The notes under the pieces are model-generated. The model did no database searches. It worked only from the letters and a program-made list of their open reading frames with translations, and was not told the origin of the DNA. Shown here piece after piece: positions 24,902 through 64,000 of a DNA stretch of 64,000 nucleotides. The stretch is taken from positions 31,030,001 through 31,094,000 of the forward strand of contig NC_134025.1 in assembly GCF_964204645.1 (NCBI RefSeq), given 5' to 3'. How positions within the stretch are numbered: the first letter of the stretch is position 1; each line of letters opens with the position of its first letter. The translations under genes and the position numbers were made by a program. This DNA comes from Tubulanus polymorphus (taxonomy: Eukaryota; Nemertea; Palaeonemertea; Tubulaniformes; Tubulanidae).

Positions 24902-25891
24902 ATGGATTCGACTAGTTTTAAGACGCCTACGTCTCCTCAGAAAAGAGAACTGATGCAAAAACGTCATTATTTCATGTTAAGCGAACTTCAAAATATGGCC
25001 CGAGACCTTCCGAGGTATTAAAGTTAGAAGCGATGATCAAATCTTATCAAATTCGTGACTGTCATGTTTGGGCCTCAGTTGATCCTCACTCAAATTAAAC
25101 CCTTAAGTAACCCACAAACTGTTTTTTACTTCCAGTAAATACCAGCAAAGACTACCGTATGATTTACTGACAGGATTAGCGAGTTCATTACTGGACGATA
25201 CAATCGTCGGAATTGTGGGTAATATGAGAGAAGTTCAACAATTAGAAGAACGTCATTTATTCAACTCTAGAGCGAAAATGATTAATGAATATAAAGGTAT
25301 TGATTCAGAGAGTGATTCCCAGGTTTCAATCCCTGATGTTCAGGTTTACTATCCACCAATGTAATGTGATTAATGTCACTGATTAAGAGACCTTTTAAAT
25401 TTATTTTACAGTAAATAAAGAAGAATTGAAGAAAAAATATAAAGAAGATAAAATTCAATCTCAAAGTAAACCACATAATCTACCGTTGATAGAACAGAGA
25501 TTTCAGAAAGACATCGAGGTAAATATATGCAGAATATAAAGCTAAGGTTCGATGCTGTTTGAGCAGGGACAGGTTCCAGGCTCAAGCTGCAGTTTAATAT
25601 CTTGTTTGCGGGGCAATGGGGCATTTGGGTTATCCTCTATTTTAATTAGTCAGATTGTGAATATTATAATTCATGTTTCAGGTTCTTAAACAGCGTCACG
25701 AGGAAGAATTAAAGAGAAGAGATATGAAAATTATCCTTGAACTCGATCAGAAAGTGATGGATCAACAGTCTATATTAGAGAAAGCCGGAGTTCCCGGATT
25801 CTACGTCACTAATAACCCTCAAGATTTACGTTTACAAATGTATTTATTAGACTTTATTACAAGAATCAGTAACATGGAGATTCCAACCTAA
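24902..25891 (+). CDS. DGCR6: DGCR6 / gonadal (gdl) family protein, 4 exons, 196 aa
   Basis: Exons: 24902-25014, 25136-25296, 25412-25518, 25682-25891; total 591 nt, in frame. The protein is small and charged, with probable coiled-coil helices. It matches the DGCR6 family along its length: [17 protein letters not shown] and [19 protein letters not shown] near the N-terminus, [20 protein letters not shown] in the middle, and the hallmark C-terminal block [30 protein letters not shown]. Human DGCR6 is about 220 aa, so this is near full length. In human the gene lies in the 22q11 DiGeorge critical region, and the fly homologue is gonadal (gdl). The molecular function is poorly defined; links to cell adhesion, migration and GABA-B receptor trafficking have been proposed. 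It starts 870 bp after the Brachyury stop and converges with HAUS6, the two stop codons lying 263 bp apart. Confidence 0.92.
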
Positions 25892-31189: not shown

Positions 31190-31505
31190 AATCTATCTTA
31201 AACCCACACAACTGTGGAACTGGATCTAGAGTCAAATTAATCCCGCACAATTGTGGAACTGGATCTAGAGTCAAATTAATCCCGCAACTGTGGAACTGGA
31301 TTCAGAGTCAGATAAAACCCACACAACTGTGGAACTGGATCTAGAGTCAAATTAAACCCACACAACTGTGGAACTGGATTCAGAGTCAGATTAAACCCAC
31401 ACAACTGTGGAACTGGATCTAGAGTCAAATTAATCCCGAACAACTGTGGAACTGGATTCAGAGTCAAATTAATCCCACACAACTGTGGAACTGGTTTCCA
31501 CAATG
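31190..31505. repeat. Minisatellite, about 39 bp unit, 8 copies
   Basis: Unit CACACAACTGTGGAACTGGA then TCTAGAGTCAAATTAATCC. Shares the GTGGAACTGGATC core with 7390-8035 and, in reverse complement, 47680-47960. Confidence 0.93.
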
Positions 31506-43500: not shown

Positions 43501-46500
43501 AAGATCTGACTTGAGCAGAGTCTACTGTATCATCCAACTCAGATATCACTCTCGAGTCAAAAGATCTGACTTGAGCGGAGTCTACTGTATCATCCAACTC
43601 AGATATCACTCTCAAGTCAAAAGATCAGACTTGAGCGGAGTCTACTGTACCATCCAACTCAGATATCACTCTCAAGTCTAAAGATCCAACTCGAGCAGAG
43701 TCTACTGAAACTACTGTAAAATCCGACTCGGATATCACTGTTGTGCTGGAGTCAACAGTTGTGTAGAACAGGTGGTATATTTAATCCGATGCAGGGATTA
43801 AAAGAAAAGATCATTGATTATCTAGTATTACTAAGTTAGTGACATATGTAACTCGTCTGTGAACATTGGATGTATTGTATTTTGTTTATTGATTTTGTGG
43901 TATCGCATTTTCAGTAATTTACTATTAGAAGATGTTGCTAAACAGAGCACGTGTGAATTAGAGGTCGATGCTGTTGCTGCTGATATATTGAACAGACTCG
44001 ATGTCGATGGTAAAATTTCAGTTTTATTTAGCTATACTTCCACAGTTGTGAATTATGAGTAGTTCATTATTACTGTTTTGGTTCTTAGAATCAAATGTTA
44101 ACTTACAGCTGTAGGTTAACGGTCTCGGACACGGTTCCACAATAAGTTAGATTTCACTCTGAGTTGAGATATGTTGATTTTTAATGAGTAAAATATAAGT
44201 CGAATTGTTCCAGTTCTACAATAAGATTTGACTCTATAGGGCTAAAATATGAACATTATGTTAATGAACATTATTTCCACCTTCAACTTAACTGAAAACT
44301 TCAGAACTGGATGCAGTTTCACAAAAAAGTTTATCTCTTAAAATCTATTTTGTTAATTGAGCTTATGTTATATCGATTTCGGCCCCAATCATCTTATACA
44401 AACATAAAGTACTTTCTTCTTTTATTTGGCTTTGATTAATTTGTTATTAAGAATTGTATGATATTACAATGTCAACGATCAATAGTTTAAACGTTGTAGC
44501 GTTTATTTATCGGTAGGAACTAGTGGTAATAATCCTGGATTAATGGCATTGTGGGAAGACGAGAAACAGAGACGTCGTAGTCGAGGGCAACAATCGTCAC
44601 ATTTATCACCTCACCAATCGCAAGGTACGAATTATCGATGAATTATCACTGAATTCAATTACAATTCATCAATAGAATGCTTAACCCTTCAATACCCTAT
44701 AGTGCTGGAGATAATTTGAAAATTTTGAATAATTCCACCCTAGTATGTTTAATAACGGGAATACCACTATAGTGCGTCTACACCGCGGCACGGTATATTG
44801 TTATTTACTAATATTTCATTATGTTAGACAGGTGCTGCCATTTTTCAATAGAGATGATTACTGATTAAATCGATACACCGCAGTGCGGTGTACTAGCAAA
44901 ATCCATCACTGATTTATACACCGCACTGCGGTGTAGACGCACTGAAAGGGTTAATCTAACTGTTTCTTTGTATTCCCGTGTGTTGCTGAAGATGATTATT
45001 AGGATATAGTGGAAACATTTAATGAAATATATATGCACAAGGAAACATTTCGGCCTCATTTTTATTTGTATTGTGGGATTATCTTTTACTCTCTCTACGT
45101 ATAACTGTTTTCTATTTGACTTGTTGTTGTATTTGACATTTTGAGATGTTTTGATATTTTAACAGATCGTGGTTTGATTGAACCGACTGATAGCGAGAAA
45201 CACTGGAAATCTCGATATAACGATATCATTCTCCAACAACAGAAAACCCTGTAAGTTTTTACTTTAATCGGGTACCATTTATAAAGGCATGTTCGATTCA
45301 TCTCTTCCAATTCTGGAATTCTCTTTCAACCAGAATACGCCCTACATATTCCAGAATAGCATAACCTGTAAACCGTATAGAAGCAGCTGGTAGTGTGTTT
45401 CATAATCCATGATTTATATTCAAAAATAGGAATACGTTTAATCAAAACCTGCCTAAATATGTAAGCACCCATATGAGGGATGGGAGACTAAATGGGATAC
45501 TTCCCCCTTGCCATGCACCACAATCACGGTTGATGTCTGGGATTGAATTCATTTCATTTGTCGCGTGATTTTATTATTGTTGTTGAAGTTATATTCATTG
45601 TTGACAATATAACGCGATGTATTCTGATTTTTAAGGCATCAATAAAGTTTGTCGTTAGTTTTCTTGTTTGGATCTGCAGTCGTGTTACTAACTGTATTAT
45701 TTATATATCTAGACAAAAAGAATTGGAACAGTTTGAATGGGAAGATACCGTACAATCATTAACTGAATCTGCGACAGCTGCTGCTGGTGCTGATATTGAT
45801 TTTGATAATCCTCCAACCACCACCACTCCTACAGGTATGTGAACGTTATTTGAATATTGAAATAATCTTCTCAGTTATTCATAGTTTGTATAAAATGTAC
45901 AGCAAAAATTTGCCTAATTCTCCCATGAAACTAATCATTTTAGATGTCTATTTCAATTTGCATCAGGTGCCATAACACAGATTGGTTATAAATACCTGAT
46001 ATAAGTGTTGAAATAACCAGCATAGATGTGCGATTATAAATCGATTTTTTGGTTCAGCTGCCCATCTGATCATTTTTAGAGCTTTTAAGAATTATGGCGC
46101 CCCTAAAGTTCATTCAAACAAGTTTCAATAGACATTAGATGTTTGAACTCATGTTTTAGGTTTGGATTTCATTCTCTATCACTGCCGAATAGTTATTCAA
46201 ATTCCCATGGATGTTTTAGTAGTTAAATGCCACATTGATGTTGATATTTTTAGATTCTAGTCCCAGTTCTCAAGATACAGTCCTCGTAGAAGAAAATGAA
46301 AACGCAAATGTTGAACACGATAATCTTCCAGTAATTGATGTTAATTCGATAAGAAAAGTTGTTTCCAGCAGTCAAAGTTTTTCATCCACGTCTCAGTCAA
46401 ACTCGCAACCAGGTAAAATGAAAATTCATATCACCTAGAATTCTAAATAATCGATGAATTGACATCAGTGAAATGTAGTATGTTACTAGTTTTGTATTGT

Positions 46501-48980
46501 GAGATTGGTTTTGAATGTTTGAAGTTAAAACAGCTGAAATTGTTGATCTCCCGGCATCTGGTTACATAGACTGATTACTCAAAAACAGTAACTAGGGACC
46601 TGGGCCCGGTTTCACGAAAAAGTTTAAGCCTAAAACGGTTAAGTTTGAATTGTTGTCATCATAGAAAACATGAAGTAACCAATAGCGACTACACCAGAAA
46701 TTTGAGTTTAACTTTTTCGTGAAACTGGATCCAGGTTTTATAGACTGGGAATCAGTAAATCCTCAATCTGGGTGACAACCACTGTAGTAAATGTGAGAAA
46801 CCATGCTAGGCCTAATATGTGATAAATTTCAAAATGTTCCCAGGGATTATTTTGCTTCCACATTTATGAAACCCAGTCGTATAAAATATATTTGAATTAT
46901 AGTTGAGCAGGAAGACAGCGTATTAGCTGAATTATTGGCGTGTTTGGAGAAAGATCTGCCGTCACCGGGATCAGTGGCCTCGCAAGTGAAAATACTAGAG
47001 GAACAAGACAGTATCCTCGGGAGTAACCCTCAACATGACGACGACGATGAGGAACAAATGACGCTGGAGATGTCTCAGAAAGTTTGGAGCGGCGATCCGA
47101 AACAAATTGATCAGGAAAATACCGATGACACTGAAAAAGAAAAGTAAGATTTACGATTCCCGCATTACCCAGAAATTGGGTAAAGCTTGGCAATTTTAAA
47201 GTGTTATATTTGGGAATTCGATAGAATCCAGGGAAATATTTGGGAAATTCATTTAACGCTTCATGTAGTTTAGTTCTGGAAAGGGTAACTTTCTTCAGCA
47301 ATTTTTCTTAATAATCACTTTTATCAATCAGTCACCTCTAAAATGTTGACTTGCCTGTCGTGTTAGAAGGTATCTGTTCATTTCCATTTGAGAATTGAAA
47401 AATCACCCATGAAAAACTTTGAATTTGAATTCATAAAACTGTTGGAACAATGAATGACAGATACAGATAGTAAAACTAATGATGTATTTCGTGTTGAATT
47501 CACTGTTTAAACGACTGATGTGTTGTAATTGTAGGAATGATATTGAGAAGGATGACTTTGATTTAGCTGGCATGGATAAATCATGGAATAGTTCTCAATG
47601 GGAAGAGGTGAATAGTAAACAAGTGCCTCAGTTAGACGGAGCTGGAGATGAGAAAATACGTAAGTTTCACAGTTTTTGGTTTCATCCTGGGTCCAGTTCC
47701 AAAGTTGTATGAGTTTAATTTAACTCTGGATCCAGTTCCACAGTTGTATGAGTTTAATTTGACTCTGGATCCAGTTCCACAGTTGTATGAGTTTAATTTA
47801 ACTCTGGATCCAGTTCCACAGTTGTATCAGTTTAATTTGACTCTGGGCCCAGTTCCACAGTTGTATGAGTTTAATTTGACTCTGGATCCAGTTCCACAGT
47901 TGTATGAGTTTAATTTGACTCTGGATCCAGTTCCACAGTTGGGTTTAATTCTTTGCGACCCAGTTCCACAGGTGGAACCGGTTGCTGTTGTATTGATCAG
48001 TAAAACTCAGTTGTTTTTACTAATATTCAGGTTATTCACTCAGACAAAAAGAATCCGAGTCCAACAACAGGAGAATAGGATCAGTGGCGTCCCCTAGTGT
48101 CAGTAATTCTTATCAGACAACGCCGAACCCTCAATCTCCGTGGATGAACTCAGTGAACCCTACGATGACTAACAACATGCAAATAGTAATCAATAGTATG
48201 AACGAAAAAGACAATCAGAATAGTGGCGCAGTCGTTACCGAGCAACCGGATATCCTGAGTCAAGCGATAGCCAGTAGCGGATTCCCGTTATCGGGAGAAT
48301 TCTCACCGACCAATCAGGAAGAAGAGACCTTGACATTCATTCCGGAGACGCAACAGAATATAAACATTGTTCCGTTAAATTCGAACAATGAGGTCATCGA
48401 TTTAATGAATATCAATATGAATAACGTGCATAACAATAACATGCATGGATACATAGCTGCTTCATCGGAGAATACAGCGTGGATACAACAATCAGACGGT
48501 TACCAGGTACAAATACCGACGTCGTCGCCGAGGAACCATCGTTTACGCAGAATCGCTCCGTATCCGCAACAACACGGTAATATCGACATGGCAACCACTA
48601 TGCAGATGAATAACGGGCAGTTATTGACGGAGTTTATTCATCAACCTCCGGCGTTTACTCAGGTCGTACCGTCACAGAATCCAAACCATCATCACATCGG
48701 CTGTCCTCAAATGAGTTCGTTTAATCCTCAAATCAATCCTCATTTTCACTCTTCACCTCATCAACTACAAAACATGTACAACGCAAGCGGTTTCGGACCG
48801 ATCGGTTTAAACCAGAATAATCCGGCTTATTACCAACCTCAGCATCATCATCTATCACCGATGGAGATGTTGCATCACAGCGTCGAGGGTCTCGCCGGAG
48901 AGAATCACCCGGGGTTACTGAGTCCGATGAGTATGGCTTACGAGTGTCTGCAACAACAGCAACAACAAGATCGACAACGA

Positions 48981-49016
<36 letters not shown>

Positions 49017-52000
49017 CAACAGAAAAAACAACGTAACACTCACGAGAAAAAGTCATCGAAACGTCGTCAATCGCCGGTGAATAAAACATCTACAAAAAAT
49101 AATCAGAAATCAGCGAATTCTGGAAGCCCAAACTCTAAACAGAATACTGTGTCACCTTTAACAAAAACGGTTCAGAGTCCGAGTGAATCTACTTCATCGT
49201 GTAGTACCGTCAGTCAAACAATACCGACCAGTAAAAATACGGAAGATTCAAATACGCGGAAAATTCAAAAAGATGATCTTTCACCGCACGCGAAATTGAC
49301 CAATCAGAATCAGAGTAACGACGATGAGAACTGTAGCGGTAAAACGGTCGGCAATTACGACAGTTTGTTTCCACGGACACCGGAACCACAGCAGACACAG
49401 ATAGAGAAACAGACGGATTCAAATAACGAGGTTCAATCGAGAACTAAACAAAACGAAATGAGTTCGGTCGATCCTGAAACTACTAAACTATCGGACGAAG
49501 CAATTCGTGGACAACTCGATTTATGGAGGTCGGAACTCGTACAAAGTTTGAAGGAAAGTAAGAAACATTCGGCAGCGGAAAATCAGTCGGAAACTCATCA
49601 GACGTTAGCCTCGATCAGTATTCAAATAGATAACGCTGCAAGTGAATTCCCTCAAAAACAAACAACTCAAACTACGGAGAAAAAGATTGAAGACAAGAGA
49701 AAGATGGATTCTTTACCGAAATCTTGCCGGCAAACGGAACGTAATCCATCGCCGAAACGACAATTTGACGATCCAACTCCGAATTTAGATCCGGAATCAT
49801 TGATTGAACCCGTTACGCCGAATTCCGAGTTTCTAGCGAGTCCCGCGGCTCCGGATATTCCTGAAGAGCACGATCTAGAGAAAGAAAAACAACTTCAAAA
49901 AAAGTCTTCAGAATTCGAAGATTTATTAAAAACTGTCAATAAGCAATCGTCGCATGATTTATCGAAACCGAAGAGAGGAGAGATGTTTATGTCTGATGTT
50001 CGAAATGAACCGCAAATCAGAGACAAACAAATGAAAGAAATTCAGATATCGCATTTGAAAAACTACGATTCAGATGATAGAGGACTGAGGAACACAAGTA
50101 GTTATGGCAATGTGAGGAGTCCTCATGGGAGTTTCCAAAATCAGAACAGCCCTGTGATGCAGAGAAAGATACCTGAGCCATCTATGAGTACAAATAGTTA
50201 TGGCGGCAATGTTAGGAGTCCTCATGGGAGTTTCCAAAATCAGAACAGCCCTGTGATGCAGAGAAAGATACCTGAGCCATCTATGAGTACAAATAGTTAT
50301 GGCGGCAATGTTAGGAGTCCTCATGGGAGTTTCCAAAATCAGAACAGCCCTGTGATGCAGAGAAAGATACCTGAGCTATCTATGAGTACAAATAGTTATG
50401 GCGGCAATGTTAGGAGTCCTCATGGGAGTTTCCAAAATCAGAACAGCCCGGTGATGCAGAGAAAGTTAACTGAGCCATCTATGAATACAAATAGTTATGT
50501 TAATGTGAGTAGTCCTCATACGACCTTCCAAAATCAAAACAGTCCAGTGATGCAGAGAAAGTTAACTGAGCCACCAATGAATACAAGCAGTTATGGCAAT
50601 GTTAGGAGTCCTCATGGGAGTTTCCAAAATCAGAACAGCCCTGTGATGCAAAGAAAGTTAACTGAGCCACCAATGAATTCAAATAATTATAGCAACATCG
50701 CGAGTCCTCATGGGACCTTCCAGAATCAGAACAGCCCGGTGATGCAAAGAAAGTTAACTGAGCCACCAATGAATTCAAATAATTATAGCAACATCGCGAG
50801 TCCTCATGGGACCTTCCAGAATCAGAACAGCCCGGTGATGCAGAGAAAGTTGACTGAACCATTAACGGTTGATGTCGGTAGTCCTATGCAGCAGCACAAT
50901 ATGAGTCGACATGTGAGTCCAATACATCATCAATCTCCAATGTCTACGATGAGTCCGAGTCATCGTAGTAATACGCCACGCGGCGGAGAACGACATCAAT
51001 CTCCGGTTCCATTTCATCATCACTATAAACCCTACTCAAATACAATTCCACAACGGAGTCCGGCCATGTCTAACCGTAATTACAGCAGTCCTTCGCATCA
51101 TTACGCATCTCCGTATCATAGTCCAGCTAAAACAGACAGCGGTCCCACTACTCCGGGCTCTCAATCAGTCAGCTGCATCACTCAAACAGCTCCAAGTAGT
51201 CCGGTATTTAATCGTCCGATATTAAACAGACCTAGTCCTCTTCCTCCGATGTCTCCTCATAGTCCATACCCGGAGCAATGGAAACATTGTACCACTCCAG
51301 CTCACGCTCCTCCGAGATTCGAGTCTCATTCTAGTCGTAATCCGTATTCTAGTCATCGTCAATCTGATCAGAGAGATGTTACCAGCAGCACCAGCAGCGG
51401 CTCTAGCGTTCCTCAGGATTTCAGTATTCGTACCTGTTCACCGTGGTCGGATAGAAACAGACACAATCTACCGCCTCCGAATCAGGGTTTCTATCGCGAG
51501 GGGTCGATGCATTCCTCGTCAGCAGGGTCGGGGGCTGGTAGACCTCATGGGAGATCCTCCTATCATACGGAATCAGTAGGATCTCCGCTGAATCTATCGG
51601 GAGATACATCAGCTCCCGCTTCATATACTTCAAATTATCATTCACCTCAACGTAAAGTAGCACCAGCAGCAGCAGCAGCAGCAGCAGTAGCATCAGTGGC
51701 ATCAGTGGCCAGCCCTGCAAGAGATAAACAGCAATATCATCAAACTAATGATGACTCGGAGTGGACGTATATGTGCAATAAGTCAGGAAGAACATTTACT
51801 TCAATGAACTCTTCTCAACAACAGAACCGTGCTCCTAATACTCACACATCATTTGAGAACTTCCTACCTCCTTCTGCTGCACAGTTACCAGCCGCTCAAC
51901 CTCCCCCTGCTCTCGATACCGGACAAACTCATCAAACTTATCAACCGGGTGAACATCATCTATTCACCGGAGAGACGGGTAACGCTCGACCGGCACAGAG

Positions 52001-55000
52001 CAGTAACCGAGGACGACGTGGAAGACCGCGCGGGCGTCCTAGAGGTAGCAAAACACGCGGGACTCGAAAAACAGACGCAACTTCACGAGTGACGATTCAG
52101 AGCAAGAAACAAAGTCTTCAAAAATCGTTCAACGCTTTGATCGAAGATTTAGAAGAGGAAGCTCAAAAACATAGAGAGATGATGAGCAATAATCAGACGA
52201 ATAGATACCGACCAGTAGTAGATAAACCTGCCCCATCACCGGCTTCATCGGACGAGTTCCCGGCATTCACAGTCCGCAGTCCCGGCCAGAATTATACTCA
52301 ACATTGGACAGAAAAACATCATCATAAAGATCCGAAAAGACCTCACGTTAAAATGAATCAACAACAACAGTTTCTTAATGTAACCACTGAGAAGAATTAC
52401 CCCGGTCAGAGTGGACGCCACGAAGCTCCGAGACTTGAACGTCCTCGCACAGTGAATATCCTTGATGATGAAATTCCTGATATAGACGAACCGCAAGATC
52501 TAACTGAAGTTCATCAACAACAGCAGCAGCAACTGAGAGTAAATACAACTCCAGCTCATGAACCAGTTTACGAGCCTCCATTATCCAGTACAAGAGCTAT
52601 AGATCTATCTGCAGGTGCCACTAATACGACAACAACACCTACATTCGATAAACTCAGACCTCCACCTCCTGAACCTGTTTTACTGAAAGATTTACTGAAG
52701 AGAAAACAGTTGTCTCATATCGCTGAACCAAAACCAGTTCCACCTTCTCCATCGCCTTTACTACTGTTAAATAATCCTCCTCACTTTACCAGCCCGGTGA
52801 AAACATCTTCGAAAAAATCAACATCGAAGCCTCCGCTTAGTCGTAAATCATCAAAAAGTAAAATGGAATCACCAATCCCGCGGATAGAACCGGTAAATCA
52901 AGGAAACATCGGAATCATGGATAAAAACAGTTCGATTCTCGATCGCTACAAACAATTACATATTCCTATAGCAACAACAGCAGACGTGATGGATACCGAG
53001 CCGGAAATCGAAATACCTGGAACTCCGGAAACACCGGGAACACCGGGAACACCAGAAATACCGTCACCTTCCTGTAAACTCAAACTCAGTAAAAAGAAAT
53101 CAAAAGACGGTTCGAATGACGAAGATAGTTGGCAGGTAGATATGATAATGAGTCCCGAGGAAGAACGTGCTGCTTTGGAAAAGTTATACAGTCACGGTCG
53201 ACAGCAAGGTTACTCACCGTTCAAAAATCAAAATAAAACCAGTCCCAGTAAATTCATCTACAAGAAAGATCGACTGAATTCGAAATTGTTCGGGATTTAT
53301 AAAAAAGTTTTCCGCGATTCGGACACCATTTCTTTCCATTGTAAAAATACAGTTAACTATCACCAGAGTCGAGCTGTTAAAAGTGCCGAGCGTAAAACAA
53401 GGGGTATGGATAAAGTGCGGCATCGCGTAAAAATCCTGCGTCAAGATAAAATTAGATATGATTTCACGAAAATCGGCAACGAGCAAGTTGTGTTGAATAA
53501 ACTATCGCCGTGGGAGATACGCGGGATACAGGATGATTTACGATTGGGTGAAACAGTCGAGGACGTCGTACGAAGAGCGGAACGCTTCCGTCGTCATAGA
53601 AACCCTAAACCAACGCGGCGTAGACGGATTTTACCTTCATTCGACGACGAGGACGAAATAATGGAGGTTTCTATCGGTAACAACGATGGTCATTGTTATT
53701 CGTTCGAGGATACAGTTCGAATGCAGCCGTTAAATTATTTCAACGAACCGCAGAAAGTGACGAGTAATTCGAGATTTGAGAAGTTGGAAAGACGATTATC
53801 GGGAGCGAGTCATTCTCAAACGGACGATGAATGGTACGTGGTGACACCTGATGAGAATATTTCGTACTATGCAGACGCTGATTACGTTCCGAATGACTCG
53901 GATGATAGTGACAGCGATTTCGAGATTTCTAAACCCGCGTGCCCGTCGTTGTCATCGGCGAGCGTCAGTCCGGGAAAAAGAGCGGTAAGAGGAATAGCAA
54001 GGAGGAGAATAGAGAAATCATCGATCGAAAGTGATCTGTTCTCGTGTGGAGCCAGCGAACGTACGTCGCCTCTCGTATCGACGTGGTCCAGTAAAAACGA
54101 TCTGACTTCGACTCTAGATAAACCATCGACTCCAAAATTCGATATGTTTAAAGTAATCGATGACAGTAAAGCAGTCGTTATAGTACAACGAGTCGAGCAA
54201 CAATTCCCGAATATATTCCAAGGTCGCGCGGTCCACGAGGTCATCGCCAGCAAGAAAACGATATTGTGTAAAGATATCAACGGTGAAATTGTTCTCGAAG
54301 TCGTCGACAAACACGAGTCGGAAAAACCCGAAGTTAAATACGATAAGAGTTACCCGGTGTTATATCGAAACTTCTTCGATCTGATGGACAACGAGAGAGC
54401 TCACGCGGACGAGCTCATCGCGAGGAAATCATCATCGTCAAAAATTAGAAGTCCGGTGAGTTCTAAAAAGACGACTCCTAAGAAAGGTCTGATACAATAC
54501 AAGAGTAATGATACCGACGATGATGATTTGCAGTTTAGTGACGAGGAGGAGAATAGCGCCTCGAATAAGAGCAGCAGCACGACGCAAGAAGTAGAAGAAC
54601 TCGATCCTGTGACGGGAATTTTAGTAAAACGTCGTAAAGACGGACGAGTTGTTAAACCGAAGAAAAAGAATACATCGCTTCATAAACGATTATCGTTAGC
54701 GTTCTGTAAACCTGTTAAACGGCGTAGAAATAGTTCCAGTCCGAGTCCGAAAGTTCAGAAAATCAACAACGGTTTGTCGGCTTTGCACGAAGCTACGTTA
54801 CGTAATATAATAGCGAAACCGGACAGCTGCGCAGCTGACTGCGATGACTTCATCGTCAGGTACGACGACGTTATGTACAAATTTGCGTTGTTCTCTCCTC
54901 CGGCGTCGGAGCGCGGAGAACTGTCTCCTCCGATGCCGTTATCTCCGGAACAAATACACGAACAACAAGAAGAACAGGAGAAACCGATCGAAAAGTGTCT

Positions 55001-58000
55001 GAAACGTTCGAACAGCGGTTTGAGTACGAGAAGTTTACTGAATTCAACTTCATCGTTGGAGGACTGCGAGATTATAGAAAACGATCGAAATGATTTGATC
55101 TCATTCGCGTCCGGTTTGAACAATAAAACTGGTTCTAAGAGCGGAGGAGCATCGAGTAAACGTTTAGACAATAACGATTACGAGACAGCGGATTACACGA
55201 ATACTGATTACCAAACGCATCAGATCAGTTTTACCGATCAGTTCGAAATGAGAAATAAACTAACTAACGAAGAGGAAGAAGATGATGAAATATTCGTATC
55301 GATGAAATCAGAGGAAACTAAAAAAGTCGAAGATGAAAAGAGGAAAGATGCTGCTACCTCCTCGGATGGTGCGTACAGCGGGTCACATCTATCCGTTCCC
55401 GTATCTTACCAACCTCATCAACTCTCTCCATCAATTCATCACAACGATGATTCATCGCTTTCATTAGACATGTCTAAATCTCCGAAAACAATCATCTACG
55501 CTGAGGACGTTCTAAAAAATCCACATCATTGGAGATCGCCGCAGGGTTCCAGTCCCGAACCCTTATTCATGTTTGATTCTAACGCGACTGATGACGTGAT
55601 ATGGGTCGGAGAGGAACACGGTTCAGTTAAAAGTGGAGCTACATCTCCTCATGGTAGCTGCAATAGCGAAGGGAAGCTGTCTAACTACAGCCGAGCATCC
55701 GGTGTCAGCATATCTAACAATCAACACAGTCCTGTTTATACAGATACAGCTGATGATAACAACGCAAATACACAGTCAATCAATGAAAAACCAGTTATAT
55801 TTCAACCATATAAATTAACTGGTACCGACTCAGTTGAAGAACCCAATCTACCGGCATCTAGTAATTCTGCTCCCAAATTCGAATCCAAACCCGATGCTTC
55901 GTCAAACTTACCCGAAAAAATGGACACTACAGAAATCGGAAAATTGAGCAAAGATGATGATAATTACCAGAATGTCGGTGAGAATGAAGACGGAATTTGT
56001 AGTTTGCAGATTATTGATGTTAGATCTGAAGCTTCTGATCAATCTTACGCTTTGAAGAAGGCGCGATCACCGGCGAGCAGTCAGGGGGCGAGTGAGGATG
56101 AAGATAATACTACGATAAAACAACAAACGAAAACTGATGATCGTCTACAAAGTAGACAACGGTGTAGAAAAGAGAAGAAAGTTTTACTGGCGAGAGAATA
56201 TTCATCGGCGCCGTGTTCACCGAGTTCGCAGTTGAGTATCGACGATAAAGTATCGGTTTATTCCGATTGTATGGGACAAGGACCGAAGCATCGGTGGAAA
56301 CAATGGAATAAATTTCATAAAGAACCGAGCGATGAACCGGCTGATAACGATAGAACCGTCAGACACAGCGACCTCTCCGCTTACTCCCGTAAGTATCATC
56401 TGAACCATCGCATTGAAATATAGAAAATCACACACAGATGAAATATATTATTTTGTAATAGTTTCAGGATTTTGGCTAATTGCCATAATTCTGTGAATAT
56501 GGAATTTAGGCAAAAGCTAGAAAATAAGAATATTTGTCATCGATTGTGGGATTTTTTTTTATTGGAAATCATCAGTTAATCGTCAGACTATTTGATTTTA
56601 TTGATGTAGCGAAAACAATTCATATGTTTGTTTTTCAGACTTGACTCCAACGGATGCAAGTCGGCACAAAAATCTCCTGAAAGTAGACAAGTCAAAGGAA
56701 TGCAGCTCTAAAGAAGTGCTACCGACCTCTAGTGGTTTATCTGTCAGTTTACAACCGTGGTTAAAAGATCAATCTCTATTTATGAACTATCGATGGTCAC
56801 CGTCGCCACCTAATTCATCAAACAGTTCAAACAGAGAAATGAATGATGTTCAATCATCATCTAGTTCTCCACATCGACCTTGGGAGGAACGCAACACTAA
56901 ATCACCAGGTTCTGAGTCAAATGTGACTAGTATATCCGGAAGATCGACCGCTACTAAAATGAAATCTGAATGGAGCTTTCAAGCTCAACTTGAGGAACTG
57001 CGCTTACAGATGGAAAAATCTGCTCGATCGCCAGTCAGAAACACTGACCAGACGCCAATCAGAAACACTGTCCAGACGCCAGTCAGAAACACTGACCAGA
57101 CGCCAGTCAGAAACACTGACCAAACACCAGTCAGAAACACTGACCAAACGCCAGTCAGAAACACTGACAAGACGCCAGTCAGAAACACTGACCAGACTCC
57201 AGTCAGAAACACTGACCAGACGCCAGTCAGAAACACTGACCAGACGCCAGTCAGAAACACTGTCCAGACGCCAGTCAGAAATGCTGACCAGACACCAGTC
57301 AGAAACACTGACCAAACGCCAATCAGAAATGCTGACCAGACACCAGTCAGAAACACTGACAAGATGGTGGTCAGAAACACTGACCAAACGCCAGTAAGAA
57401 ACACTGACCAGACTCCAGTCAGAAACACTGACCAGATGCCTGTCAGAAATGTTGACCAAACACCAGTCAGAAATATTGACCAAATCTCTGTCAGAAACAC
57501 TGACCAAAAGCCTGTTGAAAACAATGATCTAACACAAGTTAGAAACGCTGACCAAACTAAACCTCAGTCTTATTATGAATTAGACATTCAACGACAGTCG
57601 CCTACTTTCATAACATCCATCATCAATGAAACTCATCGAACTGATGTAGTTTCCACTTCAAATAAAGGTACCACACCTATACCTGGTGTAAGTAAGGCAG
57701 AAGATACTAGAACTGAAGCAACTCCAATGACCTCTCTGCGAACTGATACTGATTTCAGTGGGAAAAATGAATGTGACGAAAGCATAAGTACTAATGAAGA
57801 TTTAGATGATAGTAAAGATTTTATCCACCATTCACCGGTCAATGATAATGATATAACATCATCTCCTGTACCTGTGACTGAGCAGCAAAACGAGCAAAGT
57901 ATTGAAGACAATAGTAAGGATGATAGTAAACACTATGAACAAATTAGTTCAGTTGAAGATGAAGACAAAATGAGTGAAAAATCTGAACGGAGTGAATCAA

Positions 58001-61000
58001 AGAATAATTCACCAGTATATAAATCAATATGGTCCCCAGTCGATGATTTGAGTCATGATTTTGCTGATCCTAGCGACATCTTTATTCAAACGAGAAAATC
58101 AACTGTACCAAAAGTCATTCAGCATGATGTCGCTAGCAATGAAATTAACAAAGATGTGGTTTCAACAAAAGCGGTGGAAATAAATTCAATTCCTGGCTGT
58201 TCTGAAGCAGAAGATGTTAGTTTATCTAAAACTGATCGAGCAGAAAATAACCTATTAGTTCAGAATGAGCCTAGTTCAACCCATCATACTAAATCTCCTA
58301 GTCCTATCAGGTCACCATCAGCTAGTTCAACTCCACCCCCTCGTACTAAATCTAGTCCTATCAGGTCACCATCAGCTATTTCAACTCCACCCCCTCGTAC
58401 TAAATCTCCTAGTCCTATCAGGTCACCATCAGCTAGTTCAACTCCACCCCCTCGTACTAAATCTCCTAGTCCTATCAGGTCACCATCAGCTAGTTCAACT
58501 CCACCCTCTCGTACTAAATCTCCTAGTCCTATCAGGTCACCATCAGCTAGTTCAACTCCACCCCCTCGTACTAAATCTCCTAGTCCTATCTGGTCACCAG
58601 CTGCTTTCCTCGATGAACCAGTAACTGCTGAAAACAAAACCAAACCTGTCGATGAGAATGTTATTCATACGAGTACACCTGATTTACAACAGACCGGTAA
58701 GATATGGTCACCGGGTCGAGAGGAGTCTCAGAATTCTGAGAAAAACTCTGAGATCACTTCTGATGAAAATGACGTCGATAAACCTGAAAAACCTGCTACA
58801 AACAGTACACAATTCTCAGAAGAACCCAATCTGTCGACTGTGATTCAAAAATTCCACCCTCTTCATCCGAGGAGATCAATCTGGTCTGACGATGATAAAC
58901 TAATGGATGATTTCGATTATTCGGATTGTCAATCCGAGTACAACAGCTCGCCGAGATCATACTTCTCACCTCAAACTGTAAATAGTCCGTGTTATACAGG
59001 GCTGCATTCATCACCTCATAAAACTGACACAGCTTCAACATCGACTGCACAACCAGAAAACAAAGATTCTGCTGAGAAAATAGAGAAACATCGCGTCTCT
59101 CTGCAACCGAGTTTTACCAGCCCTATAAGTCCAGTTTTGTCGCCAGTTATAAATAAAAATCAAGACGATGTTTCTAACAACAAACAGACTGAATCAGATG
59201 CAACTAAAGACCACCTCAAATCGGATGTTCTGAACACTGCGGTACCGTTAAACAAAAGATTTCAAGTTAATTTACCACAAGTTTTCGAGTCGCCAACACC
59301 TCAAATATTTATGAACAAAAAACCACTTGCAACTTGTGACATTGGAAGACGTTTAGTTGTATTACCGATGGTTTATGATTCTCCAACTCCACAACCACTT
59401 TTGCTAAACGATAAAACAGCTGAAAGTGATGAATCACCTCGAGTTAAAACTGTTTCACTTGATACAGAAAAATCTGGAAACAAAATGAATAGTGATGCCC
59501 AAAAATTAGCAAATATATGGTCACCGTTCAAAATGGAAGAGGAGAGTGAAGAGAAAATAGATACTGAAGAAATAGAAATGTCATCTTCTGAGAGAATAGA
59601 TTTCGATACTCAGTCTATGTCAAGTGAAGATCATGAAAGTAGTGAATTCAGGCTACATTTAACACCGAGTCCGGAAATGAGTCCGTCGTACGAGTCTTCT
59701 GAGAAACCATCGGAAAGTTCAGATCAGTTAATATCACCAGAATCAATAGAACTTCGATCAAATCCATCGTATTCTACTAAACCTAAAATATTGCCATCCG
59801 TTAGATTGACTGAAGTGGAACATTCATCAACAATTTCTGGACATTCACCTGGTGCTTCACCAGTATCAGTTACAGCTTCTCCAGTATCAGTTACAGCTTC
59901 TCCAGTATCAACAAGAACTTCACCAGTATCGGCTAGTCCTTCAATCATCTCTGATACTGACACACGTAGTCCTATATGGTCACCGTATAGAGATTGTGAA
60001 TCTCCTAAAATCGAAGAAGAATTGTCTAGAAGTCCAGTATCTGAACCTGAAAAACTATCACCGCAATCAATTGTTCAACCTTCACCTAAACAGATCTGGT
60101 CTCCTCACAGAAACGAGGAAGATTCAGATGACAAGAGTGACAAGATATCTGAATGTCCTTGTCCTAGGGAATCAACTATGTCACAGATTGAACCTATGCA
60201 ACATTGTTCTCCAGATTCTGTAGTGAATAGACCACAAATCTGGTCTCCTCACAGAAATGAGGATGTTGATGGAAGTGAAAAGAAATCAGAAGATCCTATC
60301 GAGTTAACTATGCAGCTTAGTTCACAGATTAAATCTCTTGGTATGCAACCTGTTTCTCAGATTGAACCTATGCAACCTGATTCTCCTGAATATGTAGTGA
60401 ATAGACCTTCTAAAATCACGTCTCCTCAGAGAAATGAAGATGATGATGTAAATGTAGATGGACAAAAGTTGGTATTTTCATGCCCAATTGAATCAGCTAT
60501 GCAACCTAGTTCTGAATACATAGTAAATCCAACTCCTGGAATCAGGTCTCCACACAGAAAAGAGGAAGATGATGATCCTGTGGATAATAATGAAAAGAAA
60601 GGCCAATGTTCAAGTCCAATTGAATCAACTATGCAGTCTAATTCGAATATCAAACCTATACAGCCTTATACTCTTGAGCCTTTAGTGATGAGACCTCCTA
60701 AAATTTGGTCTCCGCTCAGGAATGAACAGGATGATGATATTGATGATGTGAATGGAAAAATATCTGTATGTCGAAGTCCAGTTGAATCTGAACCTGAAGT
60801 GAATAGACCTGACATCTGGTCTCCTCACAGAAATGATCAGGATACTGAAGACAAAAATGAAAAGGTATCTGAATTTTCAATTCCAACTACGCAGCTTACA
60901 TCACAAATTGAGCCTACACAACCTGAATCTATCCGGATTAAACCAAAGATCTGGTCTCCTCATAGAAATGAAGATGATGCTGATGATGATAAAAATGACA

Positions 61001-64000
61001 ATGAATTATCTCCAGTGTCGATATATGTTAGTGCTGTTGAAACAGTTGAACAGTCGGTGATAGAACCGGAACAAACCGAGAAATCAGAATCTAGTAATCA
61101 GAGAGACTTACAGCAGTCTAAATCACCTGAACGACCTACTATCTGGTCTCCTCATAGAGATCACAGTAGTTCACTTGTCCAATCACCGAGCCAACAAAGT
61201 CCTGCTCAAATCTGGTCCCCCTACAGAGATAGCCCCAGTCCGGTTTATCTAACATGTAAAAGTCCAGTAGATTCTGATCGGTTGTCACCACAACGAAGTC
61301 CGCATTCCTCAACAGTGGACAAATCTCCAACTCGGTCAATATCGAGGAGTCCAATCTGGTCTCCACATATAGATTTGAAATCTCCAAATTCGGTACAAAG
61401 TCATTCCCGATCTCCAAGTCCAAATCCTAGATCTCCAAGTCCAAATCCTAGATCTCCTAGTCCAGATCCTAGATCTCCTTGTCCAAATCCTAGATCTCCA
61501 AGTCCAAATCCTAGATCTCCTAGTCCAAATCCTAGATCTCCTTGTCCAAATCCTAGATCTTGTCCGAATATTAGATCTCCTAGTTCAAATCCTCCTTGTG
61601 CTATTTATACATCTCCCAGTCCAATTCCTCTATCTGTTAGTCCAATTCTTGCCTCTCCTGGTCAAATTCCGGATGAAAAACCTGGGATACTTTCTGAGGA
61701 TGATCTGATCAGACAAAGAAAAAGTCCGATCTGGTCGCCGCATCGTGATTTAGACAATGTATGTGAAATCGCAGAGCAAAGTTCACCAGAACCGGAAAGA
61801 CTGAATGAAACTGGAGCCGACCTTATTGAACAAAATCCAGTAGAGCAGACTGAGAATGGACAGACAGAGGTGAGCCAGACAGACGCAAGGCAGACGGAGG
61901 TGAGCCAGATGGAGTTGAGGCAGACGATGGAAGATGAAGATATGGATTTGATTCCTTGCGCGCAACTTCCTCATCCATCATCACAGAAATGTCTTAATGA
62001 ATCTCTACAGCAAACTGAAGTTAATAAACCTACTTCGAGTAACAGTTCAGATGAAGCTATGAAAATTAATGATTCAATAAAATCGAATCAAAGTCCACCT
62101 GCAAAGTTTCAAATATGGTCACCACATTCTGAGTATGACAGTCCATCACCGCTGCTACAGTGTGGACAGCCAGACAGATCGCAAACACCACTCCGGATAC
62201 CAGCAACGCCTCCAGACATACATCATCAAGATACTTCAGATAATAGTGATGATGGCTCATCATCTCCTCAATATCAACAGAATCCTCCGGAATACAGCCC
62301 TTATAAAGCACCGAAACCTAAAATCATTTCAACAGCTGGCGCACAATACTCAGTTTGGCCTCTGAGTGCATACGTGAGACAAGAGAATAGGACAACAGAA
62401 TGTGAATACAGTAGTGAAAACTCACCAGCTTCTGAAAAACCAGAATCTGAAGAGGAGCTACTACAAAACCACGAAGTTACGTCTAATTCTGATGAAGATT
62501 TGATACCTTGCGCTCAGCCACAATCAGAAAGAAAAGTCTCACATGTGACCCCAAAACCGAAGATTTGGTCGCCGCATCGAGATGAGCTTTCTGAGAGTGA
62601 GGATGGTGAGGAACTAAATTCATCTGAAGTTAAAGAAAGCGAAGAAGTGAATGAATCAGTTTCAGAATTATCATTAAATCTTACTGTTACATCATCATCT
62701 GATGCAAGTGAAAGTTCTAAAAACCACCAATCAATAACATCAGAATATGATGATATTATTCCATGTGGTCAATCAGTATTAGCTGAACCACTGGATACTC
62801 ATCAACATCAAGATGATAATGAACATTTTAATGACGAGCCAGCAATTTCACCTGCATCAAGTGAAGACACTGAACTGTCTCAAGAGGGTTTAGAGCCAGA
62901 ATCTCATATAGTTGTAGAGCAAGAATCTCATAAAGACACAGAATCTCCTGAAGATACAGGACCACAGTCTCCCAAAAATACAGGACCACGGTCTCCTAGA
63001 AAAACAGGCAGACAGTCTCCTAAAAATACAGGACCATATTCTCCTAAAAATACAGGACCACATTTTCCTAGAAATACAGGACCACAGTCTCCTAAAAATA
63101 CAGGACCACAGTCTCCTAATGTTGTCAAACCCGAGTCAGATGAATCTGCTTCAGAGGAACCACCATTTCCAAATGAAGAAGTACCACAATCTTTAAAATC
63201 CCCAAACAATAAGGAATTAAATACTGGAAGAGATGAAGAAAGTGAAACACCTAGAGATAGAAGTTTGATCTGTCAGTCAAAAGACACTTCTTCCTCTGAT
63301 GATTCCCGTGATTCTACTCCGCAGAGAGAACTAGCACGAGCCGTTGCTTTATCATTACAACAACCTGTCAAACCTTACGAAGGAGCTTTTGATTCTAGCC
63401 CTTTGTGGTTTCCAGCGTGGGATCGATTAAAATCACCACCAGAATCGGGTAACAATTCTCCAGTTCAGTCTCTGAATGATCCGATCAGTCCAGTCCTGTC
63501 ACCTGCAAGTTTAAACCAGGAACGAAGAAATTCAAATGACGCCCAAAAATCCGAACTAGAAATTCCGGTCCCCGCGGCGGAAAATTCAGAAAGAAAAATC
63601 TGGTCTCCGATTCAAGAAATGATATCATCTCCAAAACCGACGGCTATCTGGTCTCCGGGATCAGACCATGACTCGAGTAAACCCTCGTCTCCTAGTGATC
63701 ATCAAACCATCTCGCCACAAACAACTACTTCACCTGTTTCATTCTCAATCAGTTCCCTGTTAGAAACAACTCACAATACAATACCAATCAAAGAGGACAA
63801 TGAATTAGAAACTTCAGTAAGTCTGAGAGCAGATGAGTCGAACATAATGAACCCTGAAATATTGCCGAATCAACTCGCCGGTGGTGAGGAAAATACTACA
63901 ACAGAAGATACAAATAAAACCACTGATAATTCAAATAAAGAAAGTGCTGATTCTGAGGAGACTAGTGAGATACCTGCTGCTGTATCGAGCGGTGTCAGTG
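37525..64000 (+). CDS. REV3L: REV3L, DNA polymerase zeta catalytic subunit, N-terminal and middle part (3' end outside window)
   Basis: Coding exons: 37525-37663, 39690-39876, 39983-40057, 40399-40480, 41766-41850, 42385-42571, 43915-44009, 44517-44624, 45166-45250, 45713-45834, 46254-46412, 46903-47143, 47535-47659, 48031-56388, 56639 to beyond 64000; all GT-AG and phase-consistent. Exons 1-5 encode the diagnostic REV3 N-terminal family-B domain: MFSLRIVTTDHYLSPP, HVHGVFPYLYVPYDGP, KAINVALGN, HVFKISLVSGIPFYGYH, KIYLYNPSMVKR, FQPHEAHMPYSLQLFIDYNL. Exons 6-13 are acidic and Ser/Pro rich, with VPQLDGAGDEK in exon 13. Polymerase zeta extends past DNA lesions together with REV7 and POLD2/3. At least 5,803 residues are encoded here, against about 3,130 in the whole human protein, and no family-B polymerase motifs have been reached. 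The ATG lies 7 nt after a TTTCAG acceptor, so an upstream 5' UTR exon is likely. Confidence 0.93.
38490..38935. repeat. Minisatellite in REV3L intron 1, 43 bp unit, about 10 copies
   Basis: Unit TCTCCTGCCTCCCCCTGACT then AAACCGGGTCGGTCTCTCAC plus AAG, highly homogeneous. Confidence 0.95.
39450..39634 (-). rRNA. 28S rRNA fragment (partial, probably non-functional)
   Basis: Read on the minus strand the segment contains conserved large-subunit rRNA core: GGTGGGACCCGAAAGATGGT, GAACTATGCTTGAGCAGGAC, GAAGCCAGAGGAAACTCTGG, TGGAGGTCCGTAGCGATTCT, GACGTGC and GGGGCGAAAGACTA. These belong to the region around expansion segment D3. About 185 bp are present, flanked by AT-rich intron on both sides. An isolated piece inside REV3L intron 1, opposite to the gene, cannot yield a ribosome component. 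It is likely an rDNA pseudogene fragment inserted 56 bp before exon 2. Confidence 0.88.
40518..40805. mobile_element. Two adjacent diverged copies of a MITE-like element, REV3L intron 4
   Basis: Both copies share AAATATGAAGTTGCCA or AAACATGAAGTAGCCA, followed by AATTA-ACC and an A-rich tract. They end in forms of TTTTTGTGAAACTGGGCC. Same family as 46599-46735. Confidence 0.6.
41507..41592. repeat. 29-bp tandem repeat in REV3L intron 4, 3 copies
   Basis: CAGTCTACTGTAGATCAGAG plus GCAAGCCCA, three copies starting at 41507, 41536 and 41565. Confidence 0.9.
42610..43705. repeat. 60-bp minisatellite with internal hairpin in REV3L intron 6, about 18 copies
   Basis: Unit CATCCAACTCAGATATCACT, CTCAAGTCAAAAGATCAGAC, TTGAGCGGAGTCTACTGTAC. 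Nearly constant 60-bp period. CTCAAGTC and GACTTGAG within each unit form an 8-bp stem with a 9-nt loop, so a transcript would carry a row of hairpins. Confidence 0.95.
44685..44950. mobile_element. piggyBac-like MITE in REV3L intron 8
   Basis: The left end after TTAA (44681-44684) starts CCCTTCAATACCC. The right end GCACTGAAAGGG is followed by TTAA (44951-44954). TTAA duplications with CCCTTT-type termini are the mark of piggyBac-family elements. Subterminal CGTCTACACCGC repeats are inverted inside. No transposase. Confidence 0.7.
46599..46735. mobile_element. 137-bp MITE with 28-bp imperfect inverted ends, REV3L intron 11
   Basis: The left end CCTGGGCCCGGTTTCACGAA is mirrored by the right end TTCGTGAAACTGGATCCAGG, with AAAGTTTAA continuing the pairing. 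The interior has GAAAACATGAAGTAACCAAT. Related copies lie at 12007-12117, 40518-40805 and about 44315-44390. Confidence 0.8.
47680..47965. repeat. Minisatellite in REV3L intron 13, 39 bp unit, about 7 copies
   Basis: Unit TATGAGTTTAATTTGACTCT then GGATCCAGTTCCACAGTTG. Begins right after the exon 13 donor and ends about 65 bp before giant exon 14. Reverse-complement relative of 31190-31505. Confidence 0.93.
48031..56388 (+). CDS. REV3L: REV3L giant exon 14 (8,358 bp)
   Basis: One uninterrupted exon encoding about 2,786 residues, entered in phase 1 after AATATTCAG and left at CCC|GTAAGT. Order, in protein numbering: Asn/Ser/Gln-rich start; polyQ at about 866-890; eight 33-34 residue repeats at about 1252-1507; Ser/Pro/His-rich stretch; polyAla at about 1774-1782; double AT-hook GRRGRPRGRPRG near 1888; then a more ordered, basic block at about 2260-2420 (DSWQVDMIMSPEEERAALEK; SPWEIRGIQDDLRLGETVED; RRAERFRRHRNPKPTRRRR). 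That block sits where vertebrate REV3L carries the region shared with NEXMIF/KIAA2022 (DUF4683). I suspect but cannot show homology. The rest is acidic, Ser-rich and probably disordered. Human REV3L also has one very large exon here, about 4 kb, so the architecture is conserved but doubled in size. Confidence 0.9.
48946..49020 (+). repeat. REV3L: CAG/CAA repeat encoding polyGln in REV3L
   Basis: In-frame interrupted polyQ (about residues 866-890), with a pure CAG run of roughly ten codons near 48980-49008 and CAA interruptions. Likely length-polymorphic. Confidence 0.9.
50095..50870 (+). repeat. REV3L: Coding repeat in REV3L exon 14, 33-34 residues, 8 copies
   Basis: Each copy reads roughly NVRSPHGSFQNQNSPVMQRK followed by IPEPSMSTNSYGG or LTEPPMNSNNYSN. 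Copies 1-4 are nearly identical and copies 5-8 form a second subtype, so expansion occurred in at least two rounds. Frame is preserved through 99-102 bp units. Confidence 0.95.
52003..52068 (+). other. REV3L: Double AT-hook motif in REV3L
   Basis: NRGRRGRPRGRPRGSKTRG carries two overlapping copies of the AT-hook core R-G-R-P inside a basic stretch, the pattern that binds the minor groove of AT-rich DNA in HMGA-type proteins. Confidence 0.75.
56639..64000 (+). CDS. REV3L: REV3L giant exon 15 (at least 7,362 bp, open at window edge)
   Basis: The frame opens after TTTTTCAG at 56638 and, as I read it, stays open to position 64000, encoding at least 2,454 residues (from about 3350 on). It joins exon 14 in phase (C|AC gives His, then LTPTDASRHKNLL). 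Composition is Ser, Pro, Glu, Asp, Thr and Asn rich, consistent with a disordered chain. It carries about 18 exact I-W-S-P motifs plus degenerate ones, an 8-residue tandem repeat (57037-57555), a 19-residue repeat (58285-58600), a 7-residue repeat (61408-61570) and another 8-residue repeat (62938-63118). Two blocks share SPTPQ (near 59293 and 59383), and IPCAQ or IPCGQ occurs three times (61951, 62506, 62760). I know of no equivalent second giant exon in vertebrate REV3L. Confidence 0.85.
57037..57555 (+). repeat. REV3L: Coding repeat in REV3L exon 15, 8 residues (24 bp), about 21 copies
   Basis: Consensus T-P-V-R-N-T-D-Q, with variants TPIRNTVQ, MVVRNTDQ and KPVENNDL toward the ends. The frame is kept throughout. 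Open frames on the opposite strand are shadows. Confidence 0.95.
58285..58600 (+). repeat. REV3L: Coding repeat in REV3L exon 15, 19 residues (57 bp), about 5.5 copies
   Basis: Consensus PSPIRSPSASSTPPPRTKS. One copy lacks two residues. The last copy changes PIRSP to PIWSP, joining this repeat to the IWSP motif family. Confidence 0.95.
61408..61570 (+). repeat. REV3L: Coding repeat in REV3L exon 15, 7 residues (21 bp), about 7 copies
   Basis: Consensus R-S-P-S-P-N-P with Ser/Cys alternation at one position. Confidence 0.9.
62938..63118 (+). repeat. REV3L: Coding repeat in REV3L exon 15, 8 residues (24 bp), about 7-8 copies
   Basis: Consensus S-P-K-N-T-G-P-Q. The frame is kept. Confidence 0.9.

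What the first reader, a model, noticed from the sequence alone, without database searches (positions are those of the whole stretch)
48031..64000. A giant REV3: two consecutive mega-exons giving more than 5,800 residues before the polymerase domain
REV3L normally has one large exon (about 4 kb in human) encoding its disordered centre. Here an 8.36-kb exon is followed, after a 250-bp intron, by a second exon open for at least 7.36 kb. The N-terminal domain is canonical REV3 and the exon phases join cleanly. The protein upstream of the catalytic part is about 2.5 times the human equivalent. A polymerase with such a long tether could recruit many partners.
Basis: partly seen in the sequence, partly recalled or inferred. 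Interest (0 to 1): 0.85.

Follow-up and report, generated by a model that had tools for sequence, protein, structure and literature searches.

The report
Giant tether in DNA polymerase zeta
An invertebrate gene for REV3, the enzyme that lets cells copy damaged DNA, appears to carry an exceptionally long flexible arm coded by two very large exons, the second rich in repeated possible phosphorylation sites.

Summary
On the + strand lie 15 coding exons (37525 to the window end) with GT-AG borders and matching phases, giving 5,803 residues without a stop. The N-terminus is REV3. Exon 14 (8,358 bp) carries two blocks of molluscan REV3L in order, one strong and one weak. Exon 15 (at least 7,361 bp) is joined by phase, splice signals and coding bias; no relative was found. 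The catalytic part lies past the window, unseen; the own-genome search did not complete.

The human baseline misleads: 17 molluscs already have 2,611-4,103 residues before the exonuclease block. What stands out is one spacer, 214-1,138 residues in those molluscs and at least 2,929 here.

Exon 15 holds 18 copies of IWSP (shuffle mean 0.024) and 45 S/T-P-x-K/R sites; none of 125 compared REV3Ls has over 18 in the whole protein. Copies of in-frame repeats differ twice as often at third codon positions, so the peptide looks constrained. Best reading: an expanded REV3L tether acting as a proline-directed phosphorylation array. Identity is well supported; function is inferred.

The parts
37525..47659 (+). 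coding exons 1-13 of REV3L (37525-37663, 39690-39876, 39983-40057, 40399-40480, 41766-41850, 42385-42571, 43915-44009, 44517-44624, 45166-45250, 45713-45834, 46254-46412, 46903-47143, 47535-47659): N-terminal domain and start of the insertion
   Evidence: GT-AG borders and phases; REV3_N and POL3_N; 49% identity over 16% of the query to a Haliotis protein with REV3_N and polymerase domains; yeast pol zeta catalytic subunit E 1e-27
48031..56388 (+). mega-exon 14, residues 564-3349
   Evidence: open frame, splice borders, coding bias 36 of 36 windows
53418..53543 (+). block B1 of molluscan REV3L, residues 2360-2401
   Evidence: profile from molluscs, weak: 13 bits, E 3.3e-6 for a search of this one protein
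54657..54962 (+). block B3 of molluscan REV3L, residues 2773-2874; in the 24 orthologues printed it precedes the REV7-binding region
   Evidence: 81 bits, E 2.7e-27 for a search of this one protein; blastp E 5e-13 with Haliotis
50090..50862 (+). in-frame 96-bp repeat, about 8 copies, in exon 14
56389..56638 (+). 250-bp intron between the two mega-exons
   Evidence: donor ccc|gtaagtat, acceptor gtttgtttttcag|a, phase 1 on both sides
56639..63999 (+). mega-exon 15, residues 3350-5803, still open at the window end
57029..57506 (+). 24-bp in-frame repeat, about 20 copies, mostly TPVRNTDQ (T-P-x-R sites)
58280..58599 (+). 57-bp in-frame repeat with SPIRSP sites
58027..63657 (+). dispersed array of 18 IWSP motifs, 12 of them continuing as S-P-x-K/R
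61409..61593 (+). 21-bp in-frame repeat (RSPSPNP)
62944..63119 (+). 24-bp in-frame repeat (TGPQSPKN)

Best explanation
[quoted passage not shown] The insertion between the N-terminal domain and the inactive exonuclease domain has grown to more than 5,200 residues, almost all coded by two consecutive mega-exons. The excess over molluscs sits in one spacer, between conserved block B3 and the REV7-binding region. Part of it is in-frame tandem repeats whose peptide looks constrained (shown for the repeats); how the rest arose is not shown. Inferred: the spacer is a disordered tether that cyclin-dependent or other proline-directed kinases phosphorylate at many S/T-P-x-R sites (IWSPHR, TPVR, SPIR families). 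This would tie polymerase zeta's recruitment or release to cell-cycle phase while the folded parts stay joined.
For: REV3 N-terminus. 15 phase-compatible exons, 5,803 aa without stop. Blocks B1 (weak) and B3 in exon 14 in the order of molluscan REV3L. B3 begins at residue 2773 here and at 1,661-2,671 in 17 molluscs, but the B3-to-B4 spacer is 214-1,138 in those 17, 700-1,056 in the 7 deuterostomes printed, and at least 2,929 here. 12 of 12 repeat arrays in exons 14/15 have periods divisible by 3, against 16 of 35 elsewhere, p 6e-4. Mismatches between repeat copies: 85 of 593 at codon position 3 against 85 of 1,188 at positions 1+2, p 2e-6 (9 arrays); pN/pS 0.50 (7 of the 9 arrays). 18 IWSP against a shuffle mean of 0.024; 18 of the 26 Trp of exon 15 lie in IWSP. 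12 of 18 IWSP have K/R at +3 from the Ser against 33 of 144 other S/T-P, p 3e-4. 45 S/T-P-x-K/R in exon 15 against a shuffle mean of 6.9; the highest count in any of 125 whole orthologues is 18. Human REV3 is needed for DNA synthesis in mitosis (PMC9911744, passages). Single-sequence AlphaFold of residues 4450-5349: mean pLDDT 35, no helix of 4 or strand of 3 residues.
Against: The REV7-binding, exonuclease, polymerase and C-terminal cysteine parts are not in the window. Block B2 was not found. No REV3L block was found in exon 15, and a search with 1,786 of its frame's 2,465 residues, limited to proteins of about 1,356-4,314 aa, found no relative (0 of 6,605 candidates). Recognised tandem arrays cover only 19% of exon 15 and 11% of exon 14. 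No transcript data. 16 of the 45 S/T-P-x-K/R sites are TP[VI]R copies, nearly all of one array, so the count overstates independent events; copies of a repeat share ancestry, so the p-values above are optimistic. 4 of the 12 in-exon arrays have units of 3, 6 or 18 bp and low scores of 55-64. S-P-x-R fits several kinases. The one search for REV3 with CDK and phosphorylation (65 papers, 10 listed, one opened) gave no evidence on the tether. Low AlphaFold confidence without an alignment is weak evidence of disorder.
Confidence: 0.6

Rival explanations
1. The long tether is mostly neutral bloat: a genome rich in minisatellites expands any tolerant disordered exon, selection only keeps the frame open, and the extra length does nothing specific.
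For: 47 tandem arrays in 64 kb after merging overlaps, 35 of them outside the two exons; no relative of exon 15 found and no fold predicted for 900 of its residues.
Against: Amino acids of repeat copies differ less than silent sites (pN/pS 0.50). IWSP occurs 18 times, many copies between unlike flanks and with varied synonymous codons, and Trp outside it is scarce (8 of 26).
Confidence: 0.3
2. Exon 15 is a separate gene, and REV3L's large exon is followed directly by other exons or ends at the stop at 56421-56423.
For: No REV3L block was found in exon 15; the catalytic part is not in the window.
Against: Consensus-like donor and acceptor in matching phase within 35 bases of the ends of the two frames. 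Composition resembles exon 14 (rich in S, P, T, N, Q), and codon bias learnt on exon 14 reads exon 15 in frame in 30 of 31 windows. A REV3L ending in exon 14 would lack all catalytic parts.
Confidence: 0.07
3. The IWSP array is a row of REV7 (MAD2L2) binding motifs, so the tether gathers many REV7 copies.
For: I-W-S-P fits the start of the consensus phi-phi-x-P-x-x-x-x-P-S-R given in PMC6895278, if W is allowed for phi.
Against: Only 1 of 18 copies (residue 4874) meets phi-phi-x-P-x4-P-[ST]. The usual sites lie in blocks B4/B5 of other REV3Ls, which would be beyond this window.
Confidence: 0.04
4. Assembly error: repeat arrays mis-assembled, or a frame kept open by chance over an unrelated piece.
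For: Many tandem repeats; one assembly only.
Against: No stop or frameshift in 15.7 kb; repeats vary between copies and stay in frame. Copy numbers could still be off by a few units.
Confidence: 0.04

Closest known systems
REV3L of gastropods and bivalves (for example Haliotis 4,318 aa, Batillaria 4,982 aa)
   Same: N-terminal domain, blocks B1 and B3 in the same order, long insertion before the exonuclease block
   Different: B3-to-B4 spacer at least 2,929 against 214-1,138 residues (17 molluscs); 18 [ILVM]WSP motifs against 0 or 1; 45 S/T-P-x-K/R in exon 15 alone against at most 18 in a whole orthologue. Some of these gene models are flagged partial or low quality.
Vertebrate REV3L (human 3,130 aa, PMC6895278)
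   Same: N-terminal domain; one very large exon coding the insertion in mammals (1,386 aa, PMC6895278; about 4.2 kb, PMC11446547)
   Different: pre-exonuclease length 2,220-2,815 in the 5 vertebrates printed against at least 5,803; WSP usually once, at block B3 (106 of 108 non-molluscan orthologues), absent from B3 here but present 19 times in exon 15
Yeast Rev3 (PDB 6V8P, 7LXD)
   Same: N-terminal domain (E 1e-27)
   Different: 1,504 aa in all (PMC6895278)

Membership tests
REV3/REV3L (DNA polymerase zeta catalytic subunit) | REV3-type N-terminal domain at the start of the protein | tested here: met
   REV3_N 65.7 bits (cut-off 29.9), POL3_N 98.8 bits (cut-off 24.1); the listed hits carry the same two domains as precomputed
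REV3/REV3L (DNA polymerase zeta catalytic subunit) | large insertion after the N-terminal domain, with conserved blocks | tested here: met
   B1 (weak) and B3 (E 2.7e-27) in exon 14 in order; B2 not found
REV3/REV3L (DNA polymerase zeta catalytic subunit) | REV7-binding region (blocks B4, B5) | tested here: inconclusive
   not found in 5,803 residues; expected beyond 64,000
REV3/REV3L (DNA polymerase zeta catalytic subunit) | inactive exonuclease and family-B polymerase motifs (SLYPS, YGDTDS) | not testable with these tools
   outside the window; the genome search 'own' unanswered 8 times
REV3/REV3L (DNA polymerase zeta catalytic subunit) | C-terminal cysteine domain with iron-sulphur cluster | not testable with these tools
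   outside the window
REV7-binding motif (RBM) array | phi-phi-x-P-x-x-x-x-P-[ST] in each copy | tested here: not met
   1 of 18 IWSP copies
proline-directed (CDK-type) phosphorylation array | S/T-P-x-K/R in the repeated units (consensus recalled) | tested here: met
   12 of 18 IWSP and 45 sites in exon 15
proline-directed (CDK-type) phosphorylation array | the sites are phosphorylated in the cell | not testable with these tools
   needs phosphopeptide data

The most novel reading that the evidence does not exclude
A short WSP element that is present at block B3 of REV3L in 106 of 108 non-molluscan orthologues examined has, in this lineage, left that place and been multiplied into an array of 18 IWSP(H)R docking and phosphorylation sites on a tether of about 3,000 residues. 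This would turn polymerase zeta into a counter of kinase activity that engages stalled forks only at a set stage of the cell cycle.
Probability: 0.12. Interest if true: 0.75.

Novelty: new variant of a known kind. Interest (0 to 1): 0.52.

Why it matters
[quoted passage not shown] A lineage in which one spacer is at least 2.6 times the longest of 17 molluscs, with one motif repeated 18 times, points to which part of the tether may carry function and gives a testable motif. Adding the tail lengths of 12 molluscs, the full protein would be about 7,010-7,290 residues (an estimate), longer than any REV3L in the lists (4,982 at most).

Tried and rejected
Pfam on the two long frames alone gave nothing above cut-off. 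A protein search with residues 680-2465 of the exon 15 frame gave no relative. Search of this assembly for the polymerase domain did not complete, so the catalytic part and the species remain unknown; a taxonomy look-up of one guessed species led nowhere. A REV7-binding reading of IWSP was tested and dropped (1 of 18). PCNA (PIP, APIM) and REV1-binding patterns (recalled) gave no array: 0 PIP, 0 APIM, 1 RIR-like in 5,803 residues; the APIM pattern also gave 0 in the five orthologues scanned, so its absence says little. C-Y-S-F-E-D at residue 2452, which looked like the CYSLED of vertebrate REV3L, was not found in the molluscs printed and lies before B3, where the vertebrate one lies after; it was not used. 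Literature: a search for REV3, polymerase zeta, mollusc and long exon (3 papers with 3 of the 4 terms), one for REV3L with invertebrate, protein length and disorder (53 papers with 3 of 4, 10 listed) and one for 'IWSP motif' (no paper) showed no report of this; that covers only the held open-access library and, only listed titles and abstracts.

Papers: PMC6895278, PMC7181697, PMC6337749, PMC11446547 and PMC9911744 were read as found passages; the others were seen as search listings.

Limits of the statistics: 35 and 12 arrays are my merging, by hand, of 71 rows, keeping the best-scoring period. In one search, copies under 70% identity to their consensus were dropped (5 of about 8 copies of the 96-bp array were used). 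Composition was cut 21 residues late; one search repeats it with the right border.

Full report
What is there. The window is animal DNA (T-box, DGCR6, HAUS6 and REV3L pieces). On the + strand, coding exons run from the ATG at 37525 to the window end: 15 exons, all 14 introns GT..AG, phases joining, 5,803 residues without a stop. Exon 14 is 8,358 bp and exon 15 at least 7,361 bp, with a 250-bp intron between.

Is it REV3? The first 133 residues match REV3_N and POL3_N, the yeast polymerase zeta structure is the best solved relative (E 1e-27), and the listed protein hits (120 of 716; 2,560 candidates scored) are REV3Ls of molluscs, amphioxus and vertebrates, some of the molluscan ones named only 'uncharacterized protein' but with REV3 and polymerase domains. 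A second search open to proteins of about 2,470-7,860 residues gave the same families and no near-identical protein (120 listed of 545; 1,659 candidates scored). On a tree of residues 1-345 with 25 rows, one split separates this sequence plus 17 gastropods and bivalves from 7 deuterostomes (97/95), and another separates those 17 from it (98/96); the root is a midpoint, for drawing only. So it is not one of the gastropod or bivalve groups sampled, but is on their side. Annelids, brachiopods, cephalopods and chitons were not among the rows, so the phylum is open.

Do the mega-exons belong to it? I aligned 16 molluscan REV3Ls, took their conserved blocks and searched the 5,803 residues. B3 matches residues 2773-2874 with E 2.7e-27 and B1 matches 2360-2401 weakly (13 bits), both in exon 14 and in the right order; B2 was not found. 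The REV7 region (B4, B5), the exonuclease block (B6) and the polymerase block (B7) were not found and must lie past 64,000 if the gene is whole. No block was found in exon 15. It is tied to the gene by splice signals and phase, by similar composition and by codon bias (30 of 31 windows).

How unusual is it? Human REV3L has 3,130 residues, and in mammals a single exon codes the large insertion (PMC6895278; exon 13, about 4.2 kb, PMC11446547). The same review says that this exon's variation across species causes large differences in protein size. Molluscs already have 2,611-4,103 residues before the exonuclease block (17 of 17). Of 125 orthologues fetched, 124 have that block, and the longest stretch before it is 4,103 (Batillaria); these are only the listed best hits of two searches, and some gene models are partial. 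Here it is at least 5,803. B3 itself begins at about the usual place (2773 against 1,661-2,671), so the excess sits between B3 and B4: 214-1,138 in 17 molluscs, at least 2,929 here. I could not see the exon structure of the other species, so whether a second mega-exon exists elsewhere is untested.

How did it grow? The window is full of minisatellites. After merging overlaps, 12 of 12 arrays inside exons 14/15 have periods divisible by three, against 16 of 35 elsewhere (p 6e-4). Between copies, codon position 3 differs twice as often as positions 1+2 (85 of 593 against 85 of 1,188, p 2e-6; nine arrays), and pN/pS is 0.50 (seven arrays); copies below 70% identity to their consensus were dropped, and shared ancestry of copies makes these p-values optimistic. 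So the exons take part in the repeat growth seen across the locus, but the peptide looks constrained. Recognised arrays cover 19% of exon 15 and 11% of exon 14, so tandem growth is shown only for that part.

What does exon 15 encode? It is 16.4% Ser and 11.9% Pro. A single-sequence AlphaFold run of residues 4450-5349 gives mean pLDDT 35 and no fold, consistent with disorder but weak. The motif IWSP occurs 18 times (shuffle mean 0.024, maximum 1 in 2,000) and takes 18 of the 26 tryptophans. Its codons vary at silent places (ATA/ATC/ATT, TCA/TCT/TCC/TCG, all four Pro codons); since copies were chosen by the peptide, this alone is not a selection test. Position +3 from the Ser was not part of the choice, and K/R stands there in 12 of 18, against 33 of 144 for other S/T-P (p 3e-4). 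Exon 15 has 45 S/T-P-x-K/R in all (shuffle mean 6.9), 16 of them TP[VI]R; whole orthologues have at most 18 (125 examined). In seven neighbouring units between residues 4502 and 4787, found by an S-P pattern, R at +3 (not in the pattern) is present in all 7 and the W in 5 (read).

A possible ancestor of the motif. 106 of 108 non-molluscan orthologues have a WSP at or just after block B3, nearly always CWSP. Among the 17 molluscs, 6 have any WSP, 7 in all, one of them (Crassostrea, VWSPVK) about 30 residues past B3; B3 here has none. Whether IWSP derives from that element or arose anew is open.

Mechanism. Shown: identity of the N-terminus and exon 14, an open frame with coding bias, constrained repeats, repeated motifs. 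Inferred: that exon 15 is spliced into REV3L, disorder, kinase recognition, cell-cycle control. Human REV3 and its catalytic activity are needed for mitotic DNA synthesis (PMC9911744, passages), which makes cell-cycle control plausible but does not show it here. That S/T-P-x-K/R is the CDK consensus is recalled knowledge. A REV7 array was tested and rejected (1 of 18).

Verdict. A striking expansion of a known enzyme; new variant of a known kind. It is less singular than the human comparison suggests, but it has a repeated motif for which searches found nothing in the held library.

Noticed in passing
7435-8018, 14481, 31216-31409, 47729-47924: A minisatellite family with core GGAACTGGATC (or its reverse complement) recurs at four places in the window, once inside REV3L intron 13.
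   Followed up: partly
42632-43707: About 18 copies of a 60-bp repeat lie in REV3L intron 6.
   Followed up: no
11618-12890 +: Pieces of a kinase gene (Pkinase E 4e-17 at 12085-12441); by recall, neighbouring frames from about 6.8 kb look like TTK/MPS1, but the piece 6968-7411 matched no Pfam family.
   Followed up: partly
17137-19475 +: T-box transcription factor gene (T-box E 8e-30 and 2e-12 on two pieces).
   Followed up: partly
25107-25891 +: DGCR6 gene (two pieces, E 2e-13 and 1e-27).
   Followed up: partly
28582-29061 -: HAUS6 N-terminus on the other strand (E 5e-8).
   Followed up: partly
56985-57563 -: Two long open frames on the minus strand (192 and 174 aa) lie over the 24-bp in-frame repeat of exon 15; they are most likely shadows of the repeat.
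   Followed up: no
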